DNA from: Polytrichum commune
Taxonomy: Eukaryota > Streptophyta > Polytrichopsida > Polytrichales > Polytrichaceae
Length of the DNA stretch: 64,000 nucleotides
Direction of reading: 5' to 3'
Assembly (NCBI GenBank): GCA_950295325.1
Contig: OX485805.1
Span: forward strand, 16,539,501 to 16,603,500
Part shown: positions 13,234-39,230 of the stretch, in pieces
Numbering within the stretch: the first letter of the stretch is position 1
Layout of the letters: the number at the start of each line of letters is the position of its first letter
Notes under the pieces: generated by a model
Seen by the model: the letters and a program-made list of their open reading frames with translations, nothing else
The model's database searches: none
What the model was told of the DNA's origin: nothing
Program-made: the position numbers and the translations under genes

Positions 13234-13349
13234 GCTAGAATGGCTGCCAAGGAGGATAACCATACCATAACCATCCTAATAGTTAATTATAAAGATTGGA
13301 CCTCACAATAACTACCTATCACAGGGCAAGCATACATACACACAATAGC

Positions 13350-14950
13350 AACCATTCCGCCGCATACAATACGACCCCACACCGGAATGGCCAAAATACT
13401 ACCAATACACAGAACCCGCACTCACATCAATAATATACATACATAACCAAATACACCCCACAATAAACCTACAAACCCCGCAAGAATTACAAAATGCCCT
13501 AACAAGAACATTAAAGACGCACATAGACACCTACCCCATCACTCCCACAACAACACACGACAAGGTTAAATTCTCCAAAGCATGGATAAACGCCCCTAAA
13601 ACAAACCCTCCCCCTAAGAACTCCAAGACAACACCCCTTCCCCCAAAATACCACCACATTCATCCACTTAAATTCCACCCACGACATTGCATATACACAA
13701 ATGGTTCATTCATCCCACCAACCGTAAACTCGGAAGGACAAATAGAAGGCAACACCGCAGGATCTGGAATCTACAGCCCCAACAACAACATCCAAATGTC
13801 TGAAAGACTACCAGGGTACCAAAACATCCTTAGAGCAGAGCTCAATGCAATACTCACTGCTATCAAAACCATCCGTACCACCCAGATAGACACTCACATA
13901 TTCACAAACAACCTTAACAGTATATTCCTAATCAACAACCACATTCGACACCCAACATCACAACACCACCATTCCGACAAACTACTCATAGCAGCCATAG
14001 CACACCATATTTATTGGACCCCATACACAATTCATATACATAAAGAATGTGCACACTCGGGCATTATTGGTAACGAAATCGCCGACACATTGGCCAACGA
14101 AGGGACTCTTAAAGATAAACCAGATACCACACCACACATACATATAGCTCATCCCACACCCTACTAGCTAGCAAGTTGTCCAATTGCCACACACGATGGG
14201 GCCATCCGTAGCCTCCGCACAACTATAACCAAAGAACATGGAACTCGCGAAGCAGCAATAGCCAGAAACAAATTCCCATACGTTGACAAATGGCTATCAA
14301 ATGACCAAATAAACCACAAACTCTCCAATCAATTTTGGAAAAACGAAAAAACAACAAATGCACAAATATCTCAAACCTTAAAATTCGGATATGCCCAATA
14401 CATGGGTAACCATAGAAAAAACATCTTTTGGCCACACACACACCAAAACCCCAATTGATTATTGTGTCATAAAAACAATAGAGATACATGGCCACACGTC
14501 CTCTCATTGTGTGAAAACCCCTACCTCGAGGGCCTAAGAATTTCCAAACACGACAAGGCGATGCATCTCATCACACAAACACTACAAGCTAACAAGAATA
14601 CCCGCTTCTTTACACTAACCAACGCTGGTAAAATCAACAACAAATCCCCTGATCAAACAATCCCAAAATGGTTACTCAAATGTACATGCCCACAAACCCC
14701 TTGCCAATGCCATGCCAAACTCATACCAGACATCGTCTGCATAATCGGAGCCCCAAATCATATACAAACACCTATGGCACCATCCCCCACAACTATAGTC
14801 CAACTCATAGAATTCACATACTACCATGACAGATTCCCAGAACAAGCCATCACACAAAAACATATCAAATATGACGCACTAATTAATGCTATACAAAAGA
14901 ATGGGTGGAAAACCAACCCCCTCATAACCATCACAGCAGGTGTAAGAGGG
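13350..14950 (+). pseudogene. LINE ORF2 C-terminal fragment with RNase H, inactivated
   Basis: A single frame from about 13350 is broken by TAG at 14165 and TGA at 14457, then continues to 14950 and resumes at 16362. RNase H motifs occur in order: IYTNGSFIPP (13691), RAELNAI (about 13833), HIFTNNLNSIFLI (about 13895) and GNEIADTLANEG (about 14072). In active enzymes the first and third motifs carry catalytic Asp (YTDGS, FTDS). Here both are Asn, so the domain is dead even apart from the stops. Glu of RAELN and Asp of EIADT are retained. After the RNase H comes a Cys/His segment (CHKNNRDTWPHVLSLCENP) and then CTCPQTPCQC. The work of this protein in an intact element would be RNA removal during target-primed reverse transcription. 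Confidence 0.85.
14945..14950. repeat. left copy of 6-bp target duplication in the LINE
   Basis: AGAGGG (codons Arg-Gly of the LINE frame), repeated at 16362-16367. Dropping one copy plus the insertion restores AGA GGG GCC ATA CAT in frame. Confidence 0.8.
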
Positions 14951-16361
14951 TATGAGCCCAAAATGAGTGCTCATATTTGTTTTATGTTTAGAATTTATTT
15001 AGAATTGCATTTGGAGTGTTATTGAAACAATCAAAAGTATAAAAAGAGTGAGGCTTGGTGTGGTTTATGTTTTAGGCTTTAAGCCTATTTTGTGTGGTTA
15101 ATTAGAAGCTTAGTGATATTAGGGAGTGTGGTGGTCAAGTGAGTAGTGTTTGATGAAGCAAGAGGAAGGTCCTTGGATTTAAATGTTTGAATTAGAACAT
15201 GCTCTTGTTGGTTTAGAGGGTGAGGATTTAGTGGATAGGATAAGGTCCTACTAAGTAGGAGAAGGTTAAGGGGCTTGTGGTCTTGGGTGCCCTCTCCTCC
15301 TCCTCCTCTCCTCTCTTCACTTCTCTCTTCTCTTCTTCCACTCCTCTCTCTCTCCTCTCTAGGATTTGGAGTTTTTAGAGTTAGAAAAAAATGTGTGAAT
15401 TAGTAAGAGGGTATTAGGGAATTTAGTGCGATTAGGTAGGAATATTAGTAGGAGGGTCTTGTAGAGATTAGTAAGGGCAAGTAGAGAATTATTGTGGTTA
15501 ATTAGGATTTGACTACTAAGCTGGACAGTGGAGCAGCTGCCGAGGCAGTTAGCTAGGAGGACTGGAAATACTAAGCTGGACCGTGGACAGCTGCCGAGGC
15601 AGTAGCTAGGAGGGACTGGAAATACTAAGCTGGACAGTGGGCAGCTGCCGAGGCAGTTAACTAGGAGGACTGGAAATACTAAGTTGGGTAGCGAGCAGCT
15701 ACCGAAGCAGTAGCTAGGAGGGACTGGAAATACTAAGATGGACAGTGGAGCAGCTGCTGAGGCAGTTAGCTAGGAAGACTGGAAATACTAAGTTGGACCG
15801 TGGACAGTTGCCGAGGCAGTAGCTAGGAGGGACTGGAAATACTAAGTTGGACAGTGGGCAGTTGCCGAGGCAGTTAACTAGGAGGACTGGAAATACTAAG
15901 TTGGACAGTGGGCAGCTGCCGAGGCAGTTAGCTAGGAGGACTGGAAATACTAAGTTGGATAATGAGGCAGCGGCCGAGGACGGTTTTAGGAGACCAAGGT
16001 GATGTGAAGGAAGGTGCCGTGGTGTCACATTAGACTAATTAGTAGGTAGTTAATTAGGCTGTCACCTAATCTTAGTTTACATAATTAGTCGTTAGTAGCT
16101 AGGAGAACACAAAGTATTGGATGGTGGGATTAGCGATTGAACATAGGGTGTGAGTGATATTGAGTAGCAATGGGGGGTGTTATGATTGGGATAATGTAGA
16201 AGAGCGTTTTTCAACGCTTGTAATATTATCGTGGAATGGATTGGTGTGCAATGATTGATGGGTTCTCATGAGTTTGGTCAATTGAAGTTGTGGAAACATG
16301 AATGTGATATCCATTCCCTCACCCGGACTAGGACGCTTAAGGGTGGGTGGTTTGGCCTCAC
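14951..16361. mobile_element. 1.41-kb LTR-like insertion (possible solo LTR) in the LINE
   Basis: The 5-6 bp duplication AGAGGG and exact frame restoration show that this is an insertion. It has no coding capacity. A TATA-like AGTATAAAAAGAG near 15037 followed by transcribed-region-like sequence would suit an LTR. The ends are unusual: TATGAGCCCAAA at the left and TTTGGCCTCACA at the right, i.e. TGAG(C/G)CCAAA as imperfect 10-bp inverted ends rather than plain TG...CA. A solo LTR is my first reading and a non-autonomous TIR element the alternative. Its centre carries a 55-bp minisatellite. Confidence 0.65.
15509..15985. repeat. minisatellite, about 8.7 units of 53-56 bp
   Basis: ACTGGAAATACTAAG recurs at 15561, 15615, 15669, 15722, 15778, 15832, 15887 and 15942. 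Each is followed by TGGAC-GTGG-CAGCTGCCGAGGCAGT and TAGCTAGGAGG. The units contain the short palindrome CAGCTG. A repetitive minus-strand frame at 15714-16028 is only a translation of this array. Confidence 0.95.
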
Positions 16362-21155: not shown

Positions 21156-21958
21156 AGTGAGTATGCACCCCGAAAAACATGATCTAACTTAGTTGGTAAA
21201 AAAAACGATAACGTTGGTGGTAAATAGTTATAACAACACGTAACTCCGAACGTAGTAATTTAGTACTGCCCCCGATTTAAGACGACTTCATCTCACATTG
21301 AGACCCCGACCACATTAGAACCATGGGACCCAGTATTTGCATGAAGGAATAACTACTGATCCCAACATTGATGCAGGCACGGGGCAGAGTAAATTGGCTG
21401 GCTTGTCTGTAGCTTATACGCGGTGATGAGAGGATGGGGAGTGGAATGCTTTAAATGTGTTGGGGAAACCGAGTAATTACTGTGGGTATATAGCTTAGGC
21501 ACAATTTACAAGGGCCAAAAGCTTCAGATGATCATGCAGCAAATAAGCTTCTCACCGGCCTTTACATACTCACAAAACTTCGAGAACTACACTAAACATT
21601 TCGGCGTAGTTTAATTAGCGTCACCGATCCCTATTCGTCTTGCTCGATACTAAATTGTAAACCGCATGTGTAAGCGCCACCAACACTAAATGGTACATCA
21701 CACTACATGGTGTCAAACGAATTGCGCATTATATCATAGAGCTAAACAACACTGCAAATGTCGTCACTTACTGAGTCCGTGACACTATTTCGTTACAGAG
21801 CTGTGAGGACTCTGCACCCACTTTTGTTGAAATAGTTGGAATCAATCGGATGAACTCAAAGTTAAGCTGGAATGGTAGAACTTGTGAAACTCATACACAC
21901 AACGTGTAGCTAGAAAAAGTTACTGCAGTGACATAAACACACCATACGACACTAACCA
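21156..21958. other. unassigned stretch
   Basis: It holds scattered CACTAAA and GTGACACTA fragments (21590-21800) suggestive of decayed MITEs. No open frame is worth calling. Confidence 0.4.
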
Positions 21959-22322
21959 CAACATTTCGTGTAGAGCTTCGGAATCGGCATGTGTTTATGC
22001 GTTCTCAAAAACATGGTGGTGTCAAAATTATGGATATATATATATATACGAGCTACAATATTTCGTGTAGAGCTTCGGAATCAGCATGTGTTTATGTGTT
22101 CTCAAAAAATGGTGGTGTCAAAATTATGGATATATACATACGAGCTACAATATTCCATGTAGAGCTTTGGAATCGACATGTGTTTACGTGTTCTCAAAAA
22201 TATGGTGGTGTTAAATTATGGGTGTATACATATCTACGAACTACAATATTCCGTGTAGAGCTTTGGAATCGACATGTGTTTATGCGTTCTCAAAGACACG
22301 GTGGTGTTGAATTATGAATATA
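21959..22322. repeat. tandem array, about four units of 85-95 bp, cut by a MITE
   Basis: Units start near 21959, 22057, 22148 and 22242 with CAA(C/T)ATT-CGTGTAGAGCTT. They then have GGAATCG-CATGTGTTTA, TTCTCAAAAA and GGTGGTGTCAAAATTATGG, ending in a TATA-rich spacer and ACGAGCTA. Part of a further unit seems to resume after the MITE (GTGAGCTCGATACTATTCTAC at 22834). The frame 21991-22317 is a product of this periodicity. Confidence 0.9.
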
Positions 22323-32110: not shown

Positions 32111-34034
32111 TCCCCATTTGGTAAAGACCCGGACACGATGATCAAAATATCACACACTTAATACTTGTCCAAGTCAGCTGCTCGAAGTTCTTCACATCAG
32201 TCAGCAGTCTTTTTTCCATACTTGGTATTTGGAGCACCACAAGCATGGCATCTGGCCTAGTGTGTCATTAATACTTACTGTCTTGTAGTAGTAGCATGCA
32301 AGACTCACTCTGAAATTCAAATTGCCCACTTTTGGCAAAACCACACAAAACACACAGATTCATCAAGTTTCAACCACATTCACAAATCTGCTTCCACACA
32401 TAACTGTGGCCTAGCTACTAACTTCTAAGCAGCTAGTATCTTTTCCGTTCAGATCTGGACTGTCCGGAGAGAATGAATGAATGGATGGATAGCAAGTTGG
32501 TGCGATGCCATTTCAAGCTTGGCGTCTGCAGCCTGCAGGAATGGGAGAGGCTGGACGACCAGATCATGGACCCAATTATGGAAGAGTTCATAGAATACCT
32601 AACCTATACATATAATGCACATCGATCAAATTGCAGTGATCTCTTGTTTGATCGATTCTTGGACTCTTTGTCGGAAGGCGTTGGCCACAGATTGACTTAC
32701 CTTTATAACCTATGCGCTGCAAATTAGCAAACTCCTGCACCCGTGCATTCAAACTTATTAGGTATCTATCTATCTTGTCTTGTCGCTCTCTGCCGTCAGC
32801 AGCTACCAGTCTTAGCTTTAATCTCTACTAGCGTGCAAGCTGGAGGCTGGATAAAGCTTAGGCTCCGGAGTGGCTCGCCTTTTGATCGTGGAAACGTTTC
32901 ATTCGGAGCTCATGTAGCTAGATTCAACCTAGGATCTTGCAGTTTTAGGGTAGTGACTCCTACGAGGTCTATTCTTCCTGCACCGCCTTCTAACGGTACT
33001 GATGCGGTTAGGCCAAGTGGACCTTGGAAGCTACGATCCTTCCAACTGAAATTCTTCCCAATCATTTTGGGCCGCCTTTGTGGAATGTTTTCGCTTTTGG
33101 ATTTCACCGTGAGCTCAAGGGTGCCAGTGGGAGGATGGAATTCAGATCTGTGATAGGGATAGAAATGGAAGTCATTAAGTTGCATTCACGGACGGCAGAA
33201 CTCAAAACTCAATTCGATGCAGGCTCCGCTCGGTAGGTTCTCCAGATTCTCAGCTTTTGGAAGAGTCTGTGGAAGAGTCTGGAAGAGTGCTGTGAGCTTT
33301 TGCAGATCAGCTAAAGACAACAGAATAGATCGTTAGGTTAATATGATGAGATCAAAAGGGTTGCGCTTCGAAATGCATCGAAACTTGCTTTGCATTGAAT
33401 TGTTTGAAAATTAGAATGTCGAAGCAAGAATTCAGGTGTGCAAAGTGCTGCCTGTACAAGACCGCATCATCAAGTAGACATGAAGAAGCTAGCTGATGAT
33501 ATCTTTAACCCAATCTGCACAGGAAATCGGATGCATGAAATCCCTCTAGAACTAACCTCCGAACTACCGCATCTACACTCGAGTTGCCTACAACCATACC
33601 GTAAAAGTGAGAGTCGATCAAAAGTTTTGGATGAGTCATTGAAGCTGAAAAATTTAACCTAATTACACTACCACTGCTCTATATCACAGATGTTGGAAAC
33701 CTATTTGATGTATAATACATGTCACGATGAATCTCATCGCGACTATTTCCTTTGCCACAGCTTAAAATCCTACACTCAAGTGTACACTGATTTCCGATGA
33801 TCAGAGCTGCGAAGACATCGATGACGATATATGAGAGCTCTTAATTAAGTTCGTGGCATGAACGAAGTGAGAACACATTGCTCTTGATGATGAAGAAGTA
33901 CAAGAAGACACGGCTAGCTGATCCGTGTGTAATTCTTCGAACGATATTATAACATGGTCGATCGGCTCACTGCCGGTCCAATGATCAAGTTGTTGATGAT
34001 GATGTTATTCCAGCTTGTCAAGATTAATCTTCTT
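32111..34034. other. 3' side of the ERF gene; unassigned small frames
   Basis: Frames on + at 32473-32727 (84 codons), 32743-33153 and 33024-33236, and on - at 32910-33185, overlap one another. None has a known domain. 32473-32727 is the best single candidate for a small peptide, but it has no codon or homology evidence I can judge. GC is a little higher at 32840-33190 than in the neighbouring repeats. The ERF transcript probably ends within 33.7-34.03 kb. I see no canonical AATAAA on the minus strand there. Confidence 0.35.
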
Positions 34035-36534
34035 CTATGCATAGATGAGTGGCTCCAGCTGCTGATCCATCATCAGGTGGTCAGGGAACAGACGCACGTC
34101 GCCGAATAACATCGGCTGCTGCTGCTGCTGCATCATCATCATCCCGGAAGAATCAGGAGGAGGGTAATTAGCAAGATCGCTCGGCAAATATATGAGGTCG
34201 CTGCCAAAAAAGTCTCCTCCAGTGCTCATGTTGTCCGAAAGGCAAGAAACGGAGGAATGATCATCACAGTGGCCGCCGAATTGCCAGCTGTGATCATCGG
34301 TGCTTAGAAAGCAGTGTCCACCATCATCCTCTTCTGAATTACTTTGAAACTCTTGATGAGGATGATGAGAATGATGAGGATGCCACGTCATGTTGGCAGC
34401 ACTAGGGTTAACCTCACCACCACTGCTTCCGGAGGTGAACAGATCAGGAGTGATAGCGTCACGTGTATAACTGAAGTCTGCATTCAATGCAACATTCGGT
34501 TGCTCCAAGAATGGGTCGGCGTTACTGAGCTGGAATTGCCAAGCGGGTGGAATGTCACTCAGATTGTTCCAAGTTTCCGGGAGTTGAGGGGTACAGCTAT
34601 TGTTGTTGTTGTTGTTGTTGTTCCACAGCCACTCTCCTGCACGCTGTTCATGTTGTTGATGAAGTTGCTGTTGTTGCAGGTGATCGGAAAACTGCATCAT
34701 CCCAGAATTGGGTAACGAGGAGCTGGAGTTGGACATACACGACGACGGCAGTATGCTCTGCAGATTGTCAGGGTTAGCAGTCATATTGGGAGGAGAGAAG
34801 ATGAGTTGTCGAGCTGGGAGAGAGAAGTGTTGTGATGGAGATGAAGATCCATGATGAGGCCTGCTGGCAGAGTATTCAGGTGAGGAGGCTGTGTCAGTGG
34901 CGGAAGGAGAGACGGGGGAATTAGTGAGAGAGGAATCGTCAGAGTAGGGAACTTGTGTGGATAGTAAACATGGGTTGGGTGGTGAAGATATTGCACGGTT
35001 AGTTAATACACTCATGCTATCCAATCCCACTCCCACATACTTGGACACCACTTGAGCAAGGGTTCCCTGCACCGCATGATCCTCTCCTCGTCCGGAGGTG
35101 GAGAAATCATTCCCAGCAGCTACTGTTCCTCCTCGAACAGCCGGAGGAATTAAGCATCGTGCAGAAGTGGTACTGTACGCGTTTTGATTATCCTGGCTGC
35201 TCGCAGGGGTTATTGGCGAGCCATTGCTGGTGTAGGTCAAAGTGGACTCCTCCGCTGACACCGAACCCTTGGGGATGTCATCACCATTGTTGCAACAAGA
35301 GGTAGACTTAGTAGCAGCGGCCTGCAAACCAACACCACCACCGTTAAGAACACATCAATAAACTAATCCTCACATTAACTTTAACCCACCCGAGAATAAC
35401 ACTTTCTAACCCCTGACATCCAGCAACATTCAATCCAAACCTTCGGACACACCGAGGTCACAAGAAACCATCATTTTCTTGAACATTCATAAATCTTTGT
35501 AAGAAAGGGGGAAAAATAAAATAAAAACCAGTCACCTGAATTGATGGTGGTGGTGGTGCAAGAACTCCTCCTCCTCCGCTGCCGCATGAAGCTCTTGCTG
35601 GAGATAATGGTATGTGATGTGGCCGAGTCAATGGTGAAGATTGTGCTGCAACAGCAACTGCAGCATCATTCCTGTCTGAATTATGTGCACCAGTAGATTT
35701 TTGGTGCACATTGTGTTCGTACTGCAGCCACTGCTGCTTCTTTCTCACACCACCACATCCACCACCTGCTGTAAATGTCTCGGTGAAATTCGAAACCTGA
35801 GCAGCAGCTGGTGATGATTCGTGCAGCTGTCTGGGACGGTCACTGATGGCATTGGCCAACCTCTCCACGGATTCATACGCATGCATGTACGGGTCCCGAG
35901 ACCGTGGGGAGTTCGTAACTCCGTCGACCTTCCCTGAAAGCTTCGCAACCTTCGCAGCTGGCTGCTGCACACCGAGGGTTAATGCGGTGTGCCAATCGTT
36001 TACTGGGGGCTTGCTGATGCTGAGGATGGGGTGATCAGCAAGCTGAGATGATCGAGAGTCCTCGAGCTGCTGCTGCTGATGATGAATTTGTTGAGACGAC
36101 GCTTTGGAAGCTGCTGTTGCTGCGTGCAGAGCAGCGGACAAGAGGCAGGTCTGGTGTGTGGGGTAGACGAAATTGGTTCGAGCTTTCACTCCGCGCATGG
36201 AGCGAGCTGCTAGGTCGTAAGCCAGTGCTGCGTCCTCAGCTGTATCGAATGTCCCTAGCCATCGCCGTTCCCGTGTGTTGGGGTCGCGGATCTCGGCTGC
36301 GTACCGTCCCCATGGGCGACGTCGCACACCCCTGTACCGCCCGCTCTCCTGCTGGGGAACTCCGTTCTTCCGAGTTGATGATGGTGATGATGATGGTGCT
36401 TTCTTCTTAGTTGACCCAGTTCCCCCCGCCACCGTTACTGCTAGCTTGTTGTTGCTGCTGTTGTTGTTGCGATGGTGGTGAGGCGGAGGATGAATGATCT
36501 CCATCGTCGTCGTCGTCGTCCCCCGCGGACCCAT
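34035..36534 (-). CDS. AP2/ERF transcription factor, group VIII-b (ESR/LEP-like), two exons
   Basis: Exon 1 is 36534-35536, the intron 35535-35322 and exon 2 35321-34035, giving 761 codons. The start is the first ATG (GAAACCATGGGT context). The upstream frame opens only at a TTG and an in-frame TGA lies just before it. One AP2 domain (residues about 66-125) reads [19 protein letters not shown], then [16 protein letters not shown] and [19 protein letters not shown] marks the ERF rather than DREB branch, and ARTNFVYP resembles ESR1/ESR2 and LEP. Such factors bind GCC-box DNA in the nucleus and act in meristem and organ development. The rest is low-complexity: His/Pro and Asn near the N-terminus, then Gln-rich, an Asn run of eight and an acidic Ser/Asp C-terminus ([15 protein letters not shown]), possibly activating. 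It is about twice the usual length of this group, and the intron is uncommon for ERFs. I do not claim an ortholog name. Confidence 0.93.
35322..35535 (-). other. intron of the ERF gene
   Basis: Read on the minus strand, donor TTCAG|GTGACTGG and acceptor TTGGTTTGCAG|GCCGCT, phase 0, 214 bp. Reading through exon 1 instead gives an unlikely hydrophobic tail ([15 protein letters not shown]) before a stop. Confidence 0.88.
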
Positions 36535-36544
36535 GGTTTCCGCC

Positions 36545-37450
36545 AATCCACGAAACGCAAAATGTTGCAGCAAACTCACAAGTCGCAACCTCGTTCTTCC
36601 TTTGAAGCCTTGTGAAATCAATCACTTGGTACGCTTTTCCAAATGTTCGCCAATCCAACAAAAACTTGCAGCAAACCCAAACCTCGCGACGTTCTTCACC
36701 CTCCACCTCCCTTCTTTCAGCTTTGTCCCCGAATCAATCACTTGCAAGCGAAGCTCGAGTTCTCAGTGCTTGTCAATCTAACAAAACCTCGCAGAAAACC
36801 AGAAACTCGCGAGTCCAACCTCCTATTCTTCGTCCCGAAATCAATCTTTTGGGATGCTTGCTCTTCTTAATGTCATCGATCCACAAAAACCTTTGTTCCG
36901 CACCCAAAGCTTACAACGCTCTTCACCCCAATCCCCTTCCTTGGTTCCTTGGTTCCTTCTTCCGGAATCGATCACTTGGGGATGCTCTTCCTCCCAATGT
37001 TTGTCAATCTACCAAAACCAAAAACTCACACCGAACCCAAAGCTCGCAACTTTCTTCACCCCCAACTTCCCTTCCTCCCTTCTTGCGAGTCAATCACTTA
37101 GGATGATGTACTTTTCAATGTTCGCAAGGCAATCCACTAAAACACTTTTCACCGAACTAAAAACTCCCACTTCCTTCACCTCAACCTCCTTCCTCCCTTC
37201 TCAAATCACTTACTTGCGACGTTGCTCTTCCCAATGTTCGTCAATCCACCAACGCCTTACACAGAAAGGGAAAAAAGAAGAAGCAAATCTTTCTTCACCC
37301 AACCTCCTTCCTTCCGTCTTTTCTTGCTTCGTCCCGACTCAATTACTTGCGACGATGCTCTTCCCCAAAACCTTTGCACCGTACCCAAACGTCACCACTT
37401 CCTCCACCCCAACCTCCTCCTTCCCTTCCCCCTGCCTTGGAATCACTTGA
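36545..37450 (-). repeat. minisatellite in the ERF 5' region, about eight 100-130 bp units
   Basis: Units recur near 36540, 36650, 36774, 36876, 37004, 37130, 37241 and 37350. On the + strand each has AATCAATCACTT, a GATGCTCTTCC-type block, AATGTTCGTCAATCCACCAA, AACC and CTCGCAAC, and TTCTTCACCCCAACCTCC. The gene-sense strand is purine-rich. The unit nearest the gene (36540-36600) is the most diverged and lies just before the start codon. It overlaps the presumed 5' leader and promoter. Several short + frames here are only translations of the array. Confidence 0.88.
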
Positions 37451-37547
37451 GAGCTCTCTTTGCCCTCCGACAAAGTGCACTTGCTCTCACACCAGAAGCT
37501 CCGGAAACAGCACCCGTGTAAGAAGTTGAGCCCAGTGGCGACACGCC

Positions 37548-37562
37548 GCACTTATAACTTAT
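37548..37562 (-). promoter_or_regulatory. possible TATA box for the ERF gene
   Basis: The minus strand reads AAGTTATAAGTGCGG just upstream of the minisatellite. If used, the leader would be about 1 kb and contain the repeat array. Another TTATAAG-type site lies near 37780. Neither is proven. Confidence 0.3.
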
Positions 37563-39230
37563 GCATAGCCATCCATCCTGCCATCGGAAGCACCCATTGA
37601 CCCCGAGCCCGAGGGATTTGAAACTTGCGTTGCAAAATACTCACACCAGCAGGCCCCAACGCACAAGGCAAGGCAATTTAAGGGCAGGCACCAAACCGAG
37701 GCCACCCCCCACCGACCGACGCTGGTGACGACCGGTTCCAAGCTGCGGCAGTACCACAGCTACTATACGCTTTCTTATAACTTAATACTTCCTGGGTCGC
37801 AACTGCTGCACTGGATTCCCAGCGTGCTCGGCTGTCGGAATGGTCTGCGTTGCAATAACTGAAGCTACTGGGATGCAGCGGCAATGAGGCCGTCTCTCTG
37901 CGCAAGTTGCGATCGCAAACACAGCAACTGAATTGGCAGCCCCCTCCAACACAAGCATCTGCAGGAGCAAGGCACGCCTTATACCATCCACGTGCATGCA
38001 GGAAGGAATGATGAGCGCAGCAGTGTTGTTGCCTACTAGAGCATTCTGCTGCATTTTGTTGTAGTATTTTTTATTTTTTTATTTTTTTATTTTTCTGATT
38101 TACGACATATGCTCCAACCCTCCCTAATATCATGCCCACGGCGACCAAAGTGCACGGGATATGGAGGAGATGTCTGTAGTGTTAACATGGATGCGTGGTA
38201 ATAGAGAATTAGTGTAGCGTATGACACTAGGGAATCTCACAAAGTCAATATTGGCAATTATGACAATATTGGCAATTATGACAACGCAGATGCATGCAAG
38301 TATGTGGATGATTCTAATGTCAAAACCTATGATATATCAGAGGGAAATGTGATAACAAGGAGGGAGATTTAGACTAAGCACATCTGTTCCCTAAGGTTTT
38401 TGGATATAAGAAAGCGAGTAACACTGTGGAGGTTAGGGTGTATATGAAATGAAATGAAATGGTATCATGCACATCATATGTAGCAGTATTGTGCATATAT
38501 ATAATGTGTAATGGAGTTACACTACAGGCATTAGGCCATGGCTCCATAACATAATTCAACAGTGTAAGGGTCCTCCTACATCATCAGGCTTGACACTGTA
38601 GCGAGGAGTGCAAATATTTGCAAGATGTTGTGATTATACTCTTAGGATTATGTCGCCCATCCAACTGAAGGTATGTGTTGACCAACAAATGTTGTGTCTT
38701 AAATGACATGGCACTCCGTGGACTATATGGCCCACAGCCTTTGGGAGGTCACTAGCCGTTAGTGTAAACCTAAAATCATGCTTCACATTCCACTAGGCCT
38801 ACCTTCAAGAGTTAAATTGAAAAATTACCCTACGATTCCGGCCAACATGATCCGTACTTACCATGTGGGATTTCATGTAGATTTTCCATCCATTGAAATG
38901 TTAAAGGTTGTAGTCCACAACTACCCTCATGTTAACCTAAAATGGGGGCCCGTGACACTCTCAACTAATGAATCTAAAATTTTCTCAAGAGCCATGGGCT
39001 TAAGGGCTTTCGTGTAAGCATGCCCTACTATGCATACGGGGGCAGTGGCAAACTAGGTAGCAAACTAGATGGCATGCTACCCAAGTGATGAACCTATGAC
39101 TACTATGATTTTTTTGTTGTTTTGTCTTAGTGTCTCAAAAAAAATCTAGCAATTGACTTGTCATTAAATGGTCATATTGCCCTGTGAACTATCATAAGAG
39201 AAGTGGGAGGGGGGGGGGGGGTTGTATGAC
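37563..39230. other. ERF upstream flank and unassigned stretch
   Basis: 37563-38060 is complex and GC-balanced, as expected of promoter DNA. From about 38065 it turns into low-complexity T-rich sequence and repeat-like DNA. A short direct duplication (AATATTGGCAATTATGACA) lies at 38249-38284. The frame 38778-39017 has no recognisable domain. Confidence 0.4.
39209..39222. repeat. poly-G run
   Basis: About 13 consecutive G at the left edge of a reverse R1 copy. Confidence 0.8.

What the first reader, a model, noticed from the sequence alone, without database searches (positions are those of the whole stretch)
36534..37450. An ERF gene whose leader/promoter is a minisatellite reaching the start codon
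About eight units of 100-130 bp, strongly purine-rich on the gene-sense strand, run from about 37450 down to 36540, ending at the ATG at 36534. Between promoter and coding region a variable-number array could alter leader length, nucleosome placement or translation. A developmental regulator of this class behind a length-variable array is unusual. Unit count and decay gradient (oldest next to the gene) are seen directly. The regulatory effect is inference.
Basis: partly seen in the sequence, partly recalled or inferred. Interest (0 to 1): 0.7.

Follow-up and report, generated by a model that had tools for sequence, protein, structure and literature searches.

The report
Old repeat forms plant gene's leader
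Just upstream of a plant regulatory gene lies an old, decayed eight-copy DNA repeat that probably forms most of the untranslated front end of the gene's message; it looks too worn to act as a length-changing switch, so it is a curiosity rather than a discovery.

Summary
The array is real. Eight head-to-tail units of about 93-137 bp run from 37448 to the start codon at 36534, upstream of an AP2/ERF gene on the minus strand. A model of any seven units recovers the eighth (8 of 8); the best match elsewhere in the window has E 0.79. The gene-sense strand is 62% purine.

The 'mRNA leader' reading gains support. The sense strand holds 1 ATG in 914 nt, against 11.7 in dinucleotide shuffles and 9.7 to 17.4 in neutral simulations. 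That ATG has a weak context and opens an 11-codon frame. The ATG-poor stretch begins beside a TATAAG at 37556, and the array has no TATA. Against it: CAG is at least as depleted as ATG.

The decay gradient is not found. Length variation is untested and unlikely: units are 48-76% identical. The leader is no more structured than shuffles; G-quadruplex motifs and purine runs do not exceed them. No transcripts, relatives or genome could be consulted. Best reading: an ancient tandem duplication that lengthened a 5' leader, kept nearly free of upstream ATGs.

The parts
36535..37448 (-). array of eight degenerate tandem units, 93-137 nt each
37349..37448 (-). unit 1
   Evidence: held-out E 2.4e-6
37212..37348 (-). 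unit 2, with a pyrimidine tract not seen in the other units
   Evidence: held-out E 3.4e-8
37100..37211 (-). unit 3
   Evidence: held-out E 2.8e-10
36978..37099 (-). unit 4
   Evidence: held-out E 2.6e-17
36851..36977 (-). unit 5
   Evidence: held-out E 5.5e-10
36744..36850 (-). unit 6
   Evidence: held-out E 4.4e-7
36628..36743 (-). unit 7
   Evidence: held-out E 3.8e-17
36535..36627 (-). unit 8, runs up to the start codon
   Evidence: held-out E 0.0011, aligned to 36541
37551..37556 (-). TATAAG, nearest TATA-like site upstream of the array; implied start of transcription near 37527 (inference)
   Evidence: no TATA between 37556 and the start codon
36841..36876 (-). only upstream ATG in the array; 11-codon frame, T at -3 and A at +4
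37256..37257 (-). candidate 3' splice site after a pyrimidine tract (about 37263-37283), inside unit 2
   Evidence: highest pyrimidine content of the AG sites in the presumed leader (0.88)
35536..36534 (-). ERF coding exon 1, with AP2 domain at residues 66-115
34035..35321 (-). ERF coding exon 2; with exon 1 a 761-residue protein (intron 35322-35535, GT..AG, phase 0)
   Evidence: gene model by eye

Best explanation
A segment of about 115 bp next to an ERF gene was duplicated in tandem to eight copies long ago and has since decayed. Transcription most likely starts upstream of it, near 37527 behind the TATAAG at 37556, so the array makes up about nine tenths of a 5' leader of roughly 1 kb. Ribosomes scan through it to the well-placed ATG at 36534. 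Selection has removed nearly all upstream ATGs that mutation would have made. The array therefore acts mainly as a long, permissive, fixed-length spacer, not as a length-variable switch. Shown: the array, its high divergence, ATG scarcity, absence of extra predicted structure. Inferred: start of transcription, scanning, selection, lack of length variation.
For: Sense-strand ATG: 1 observed in 37480-36537 (944 nt), against 11.7 (sd 2.6) in 5000 dinucleotide shuffles, none as low; the 520 nt upstream (37481-38000) are not depleted, 8 against 10.0. The same for the array alone, 1 against 11.7. Neutral star simulation of the units from their majority sequence: mean 9.7, P(<=1) 0.0008; a second substitution scheme gave mean 10.2, P 0.00035. 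Simulation along the unit tree, started from each of seven observed units: means 13.8 to 17.4, 0 of 1500 runs as low in each. CAT (ATG on the other strand) is not depleted: 11 observed, simulated means 5.7 to 10.1. ATG-free 690 nt from 37566 to 36876. No TATA in the array; main ATG has A at -3 and G at +4, the upstream ATG has neither. Sense stops 18, 12 and 10 in the three frames, so the array is not coding. Fold of 37527-36535: z 0.73, 15 of 20 shuffles fold at least as well. In 478 eukaryotes AUG has the lowest 5' UTR to 3' UTR ratio of the 64 triplets, while AUU and UUG tend to be higher in 5' UTRs; median annotated 5' UTR length reaches 477 nt in Physcomitrella (PMC7889888, passages seen). 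Here ATT is also raised (25 against 15.8; TTG 44 against 37.1).
Against: ATG is not uniquely scarce. CAG is scarcer by dinucleotide shuffle (1 against 13.4, z -4.8); AAA and AAT are about as scarce by z (-4.2, -4.1; ATG -4.1). CAG is also the most depleted triplet of the star simulation, ATG second, and CAG and TAG are low in the tree simulation (P at most 0.013 and 0.010). A shared ancestor of the units can skew any triplet. The window's longest ATG-free stretch on that strand (15200-16030) covers another tandem array, so a repeat can lack ATG for other reasons. No transcript, relative or genome data were available.
Confidence: 0.6

Rival explanations
1. The array works as DNA: a cluster of repeated transcription-factor sites in an untranscribed proximal promoter, for example around the conserved AAGTGATTGATT at the start of each unit or the many GATT cores (a core recalled for type-B cytokinin response regulators).
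For: AAGTGATTGATT is the best conserved 12-column stretch (0.93, permutation P 0.0036); GATT on both strands 18 against 8.3 in shuffles, 0 of 1000 as high. A 2026 paper states that moss PpESR genes, ERFs of the class this one may belong to, are regulated by cytokinin (PMC13386412, passages).
Against: Of three stretch lengths tried only 12 was notable (8: P 0.078; 20: P 0.32); conservation along the unit is not clumped overall (lag-1 autocorrelation 0.03, P 0.32); a repeat raises counts of any of its words; GATTCG is not enriched (1 against 0.4, P 0.33); other places in the window reach 21 GATT. It does not explain strand-specific ATG scarcity.
Confidence: 0.2
2. The leader is spliced: an intron ends at the AG at 37257-37256 inside unit 2, so unit 1 and most of unit 2 are intronic and about six units stay in the mRNA.
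For: A pyrimidine tract followed by TGTAAG|G, the most pyrimidine-rich AG site of the presumed leader (0.88; next 0.71), and a GTGAG donor candidate upstream at 37490. CAG is nearly absent from the array, which would fit avoidance of other acceptors.
Against: No transcript evidence; the tract may be chance mutation of one unit; the intron would be G-rich, unlike most plant introns (recalled). The CAG reading was made after seeing the data.
Confidence: 0.15
3. Purine tracts or two-quartet RNA G-quadruplexes in the units control translation, as the R-motif or the SMXL5-JULGI system does in Arabidopsis.
For: Four two-quartet motifs and eight purine runs of 11 nt or more in the array. Precedents: PMC9998923 and PMC7466424 (passages).
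Against: Neither count exceeds shuffles of the same dinucleotide content (4 against 2.2, P 0.16; 8 against 5.2, P 0.09); no three-quartet motif; the purine stretch is not the best conserved part of the unit at any of three stretch lengths.
Confidence: 0.1
4. One reading: a length-variable minisatellite that tunes leader length or nucleosome placement between individuals.
For: It is a tandem array at the 5' end of a regulatory gene.
Against: Mean identity 62%, longest exact word repeated in the array 14 nt: little for slippage or unequal exchange to work on. No gradient. Copy number in other individuals was not tested.
Confidence: 0.05

Closest known systems
Minisatellite/VNTR in a gene's 5' region (search listing only)
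   Same: Head-to-tail units of about 100 bp beside a gene.
   Different: Units only 48-76% identical, so probably frozen; variation not shown.
Plant 5' leaders depleted of upstream ATG (PMC7889888, passages)
   Same: ATG scarcity, raised ATT, good context only at the main ATG.
   Different: Here the leader appears to have grown by tandem duplication; about 1 kb (inferred start) is long even against the 477-nt median of Physcomitrella.
R-motif / PABP purine leaders (PMC9998923, passages)
   Same: Purine-rich 5' leader.
   Different: Purine runs not above dinucleotide shuffles; no link to immunity, no functional test.
ERF-VIII genes ESR1/DRN, MpLAXR, PpESR (PMC13386412, passages)
   Same: AP2 domain gene; resemblance of the domain recalled from memory.
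   Different: Subfamily not tested; no leader array mentioned in the passages seen.

Membership tests
AP2/ERF transcription factor | AP2 domain | tested here: met
   Pfam PF00847, 52.5 bits, cut-off 33.3; best solved relative ERF096, E 7.4e-24
ERF-VIII / ESR-LAXR class | placement in a tree with named ERF-VIII proteins | not tested
   no set of named plant ERF proteins was at hand; label recalled
Minisatellite (tandem array, units over about 10 bp) | homologous head-to-tail units | tested here: met
   8 of 8 held-out units recovered
Variable-number tandem repeat | near-identical units that permit copy-number change | tested here: not met
   48-76% identity, longest repeated word 14 nt
Variable-number tandem repeat | copy-number differences between individuals | not testable with these tools
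   no other accession held; own-genome search did not complete
5' untranslated leader | upstream ATG depletion on the sense strand | tested here: met
   but CAG is depleted at least as much
5' untranslated leader | transcript covering it | not testable with these tools
   no transcript data
RNA G-quadruplex leader | G-tract motifs beyond composition | tested here: not met
   4 against 2.2 in shuffles, P 0.16

The most novel reading that the evidence does not exclude
A kilobase mRNA leader of a plant cell-fate regulator was built by tandem duplication and then policed over a long time (perhaps tens of millions of years, a guess from the divergence and a recalled rate) against upstream ATGs and acceptor-like CAG triplets, so that leader length itself is a selected, fixed brake or delay on making the protein.
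Probability: 0.2. Interest if true: 0.5.

Novelty: new member of a known kind. Interest (0 to 1): 0.3.

Why it matters
If the leader reading holds, this is a readable case of how a long 5' leader arises, by tandem duplication, and of selection against upstream start codons seen among copies within one gene, without needing other species. That would make the ATG-avoidance test usable on other repeat-built leaders. As a switch or variable locus it has no support here.

Tried and rejected
Tandem Repeats Finder on the window misses the array. Plain autocorrelation showed no lag between 60 and 259 with identity above 0.36, as unit lengths vary. Extension of the array into the coding region or above 37448: local alignment of seven units to each flank gave no convincing match (lowest P 0.077 and 0.147; a control flank gave 0.037), so rejected. 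Coding in sense: rejected, 18, 12 and 10 stops in three frames. Long open frames on the other strand (up to 222 codons): no unit of 1-7 has a length divisible by three, so units would be read in different frames, and purine skew explains few stops; not pursued further. Known RNA family: none at 33400-38400 above its curated score (two rows below it, E 0.21 and 0.45). The bacterial promoter scan has no bearing on a plant gene. Distant DNA match of the array among plasmid records: none. Pfam on ten further open frames of the window: 1 of 10 matched, an RNase H domain at 13349-14164. Exon 2 of the ERF gene matched no Pfam family. A moss STEMIN paper (PMC12316476, passages) gave nothing on a leader. 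Searches are search listings used to choose papers. Paper searches for a leader minisatellite in moss or plant genes: 20 of 132 listed; 12 of 116; 4 of 4; none held all terms; 12 of 19; among the papers listed I saw no title or opening of an abstract that describes one; none of those was opened for this question except PMC7889888.

Full report
What is there. On the minus strand, immediately upstream of an open frame that begins ATG at 36534, lie eight head-to-tail units that start at 37448, 37348, 37211, 37099, 36977, 36850, 36743 and 36627. Models built from any seven units recover the eighth, 8 of 8, with E from 2.6e-17 to 2.4e-6 for units 1-7 and 0.0011 for unit 8; the best hit elsewhere in the window over the eight searches had E 0.79. 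Pairwise identity is 48-76%, mean 62%, over 28 pairs. Tandem Repeats Finder at score 50 is silent there. No sign was found that the array enters the coding region or extends above 37448. In the profile built from all units, unit 8 aligns through the start codon; held out, it aligns to 36541. So the ATG sits at the edge of the last unit.

The gene. The frame carries an AP2 domain closest among solved structures to ERF096. A GT..AG intron of 214 nt at 35535-35322 keeps frame and gives a 761-residue protein with many runs of Q, N, H and S (model by eye). The domain reads like the ESR/LAXR class of ERF-VIII, but that is recall, not a test. A 2026 paper describes ESR1, MpLAXR and PpESR of that class as acting in stem-cell identity and regeneration (PMC13386412, passages seen). 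The organism is not known to me; a land plant, perhaps a moss, is a guess.

Is it leader? The sense strand of the array has one ATG. Dinucleotide shuffles expect 11.7, and the 520 nt just upstream are not depleted (8 against 10.0). Because repeats share ancestry, I simulated neutral decay of the units. A star model gave 9.7 expected, P 0.0008. A tree model started from seven observed units gave 13.8-17.4, with 0 of 1500 runs as low in each. The opposite-strand triplet CAT is not scarce. The single ATG, at 36876, has a poor context and an 11-codon frame; the main ATG has A at -3 and G at +4. The ATG-free stretch starts at 37566, ten bases above a TATAAG at 37556, and there is no TATA below it down to the start codon. 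Together these favour a transcript that begins near 37527 and contains the array. Against: CAG, AAA and AAT are as scarce as ATG by z in shuffles, CAG is the most depleted triplet of the star model with ATG second, CAG and TAG are low in the tree model too, and the longest ATG-free stretch on this strand of the window covers a different tandem array. The models assume a fixed alignment, and in the tree model gap columns of the starting unit are filled at random. CAG scarcity might reflect avoidance of splice acceptors, a thought formed after seeing the data.

What it does. The leader folds no better than shuffles, z 0.73. Two-quartet G motifs (4 against 2.2, P 0.16) and purine runs (8 against 5.2, P 0.09) are not beyond dinucleotide shuffles. 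The 12-mer AAGTGATTGATT is the best kept 12-column stretch (P 0.0036; stretches of 8 and 20 gave P 0.078 and 0.32), and GATT is doubled (18 against 8.3), but conservation is not clumped overall and GATTCG is not enriched. One unit holds a good-looking 3' splice site at 37256. I therefore favour a passive long leader kept nearly free of upstream ATGs, with DNA-level sites, a leader intron and purine-based translational control as weaker rivals.

What it is not. Order along the array does not predict divergence (Spearman 0.17, P 0.69), so no decay gradient was found.

Known work. Depletion of upstream AUG in 5' UTRs is general, and Physcomitrella has the longest median annotated 5' UTR, 477 nt, of the multicellular species in PMC7889888 (passages). 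Purine R-motifs (PMC9998923, passages) and RNA G-quadruplexes (PMC7466424, passages) are known features of plant mRNAs, not shown to work here. Searches for a described leader minisatellite of this sort showed none by title or opening of the abstract among the papers listed; the lists of 17, 34 and 48 were cut.

Noticed in passing
15514-15979: A 54-bp tandem array (8.6 copies, 87% matches) lies inside the longest ATG-free stretch of the minus strand (15200-16030); 914-nt windows over it starting at 15348-15405 are as purine-rich on the plus strand as the ERF array is on the minus strand.
   Followed up: partly
21954-22322: A 96-bp tandem array of 3.9 copies, 86% matches, better kept than the one by the ERF gene.
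   Followed up: no
13349-14164: Open frame with an RNase H domain (Pfam E 5.6e-9), probably from a retroelement.
   Followed up: no
36535-37448: CAG is nearly absent from the sense strand (1 against 13.4 in shuffles), as if splice acceptors were avoided.
   Followed up: partly
36606-37529, plus strand: Open frames of 122 to 222 codons antisense to the array, probably a by-product of purine skew.
   Followed up: partly
37779 and 37556, minus strand: The motif AAGTTATAAG occurs twice upstream of the array, giving two TATA-like candidates 223 bp apart.
   Followed up: no
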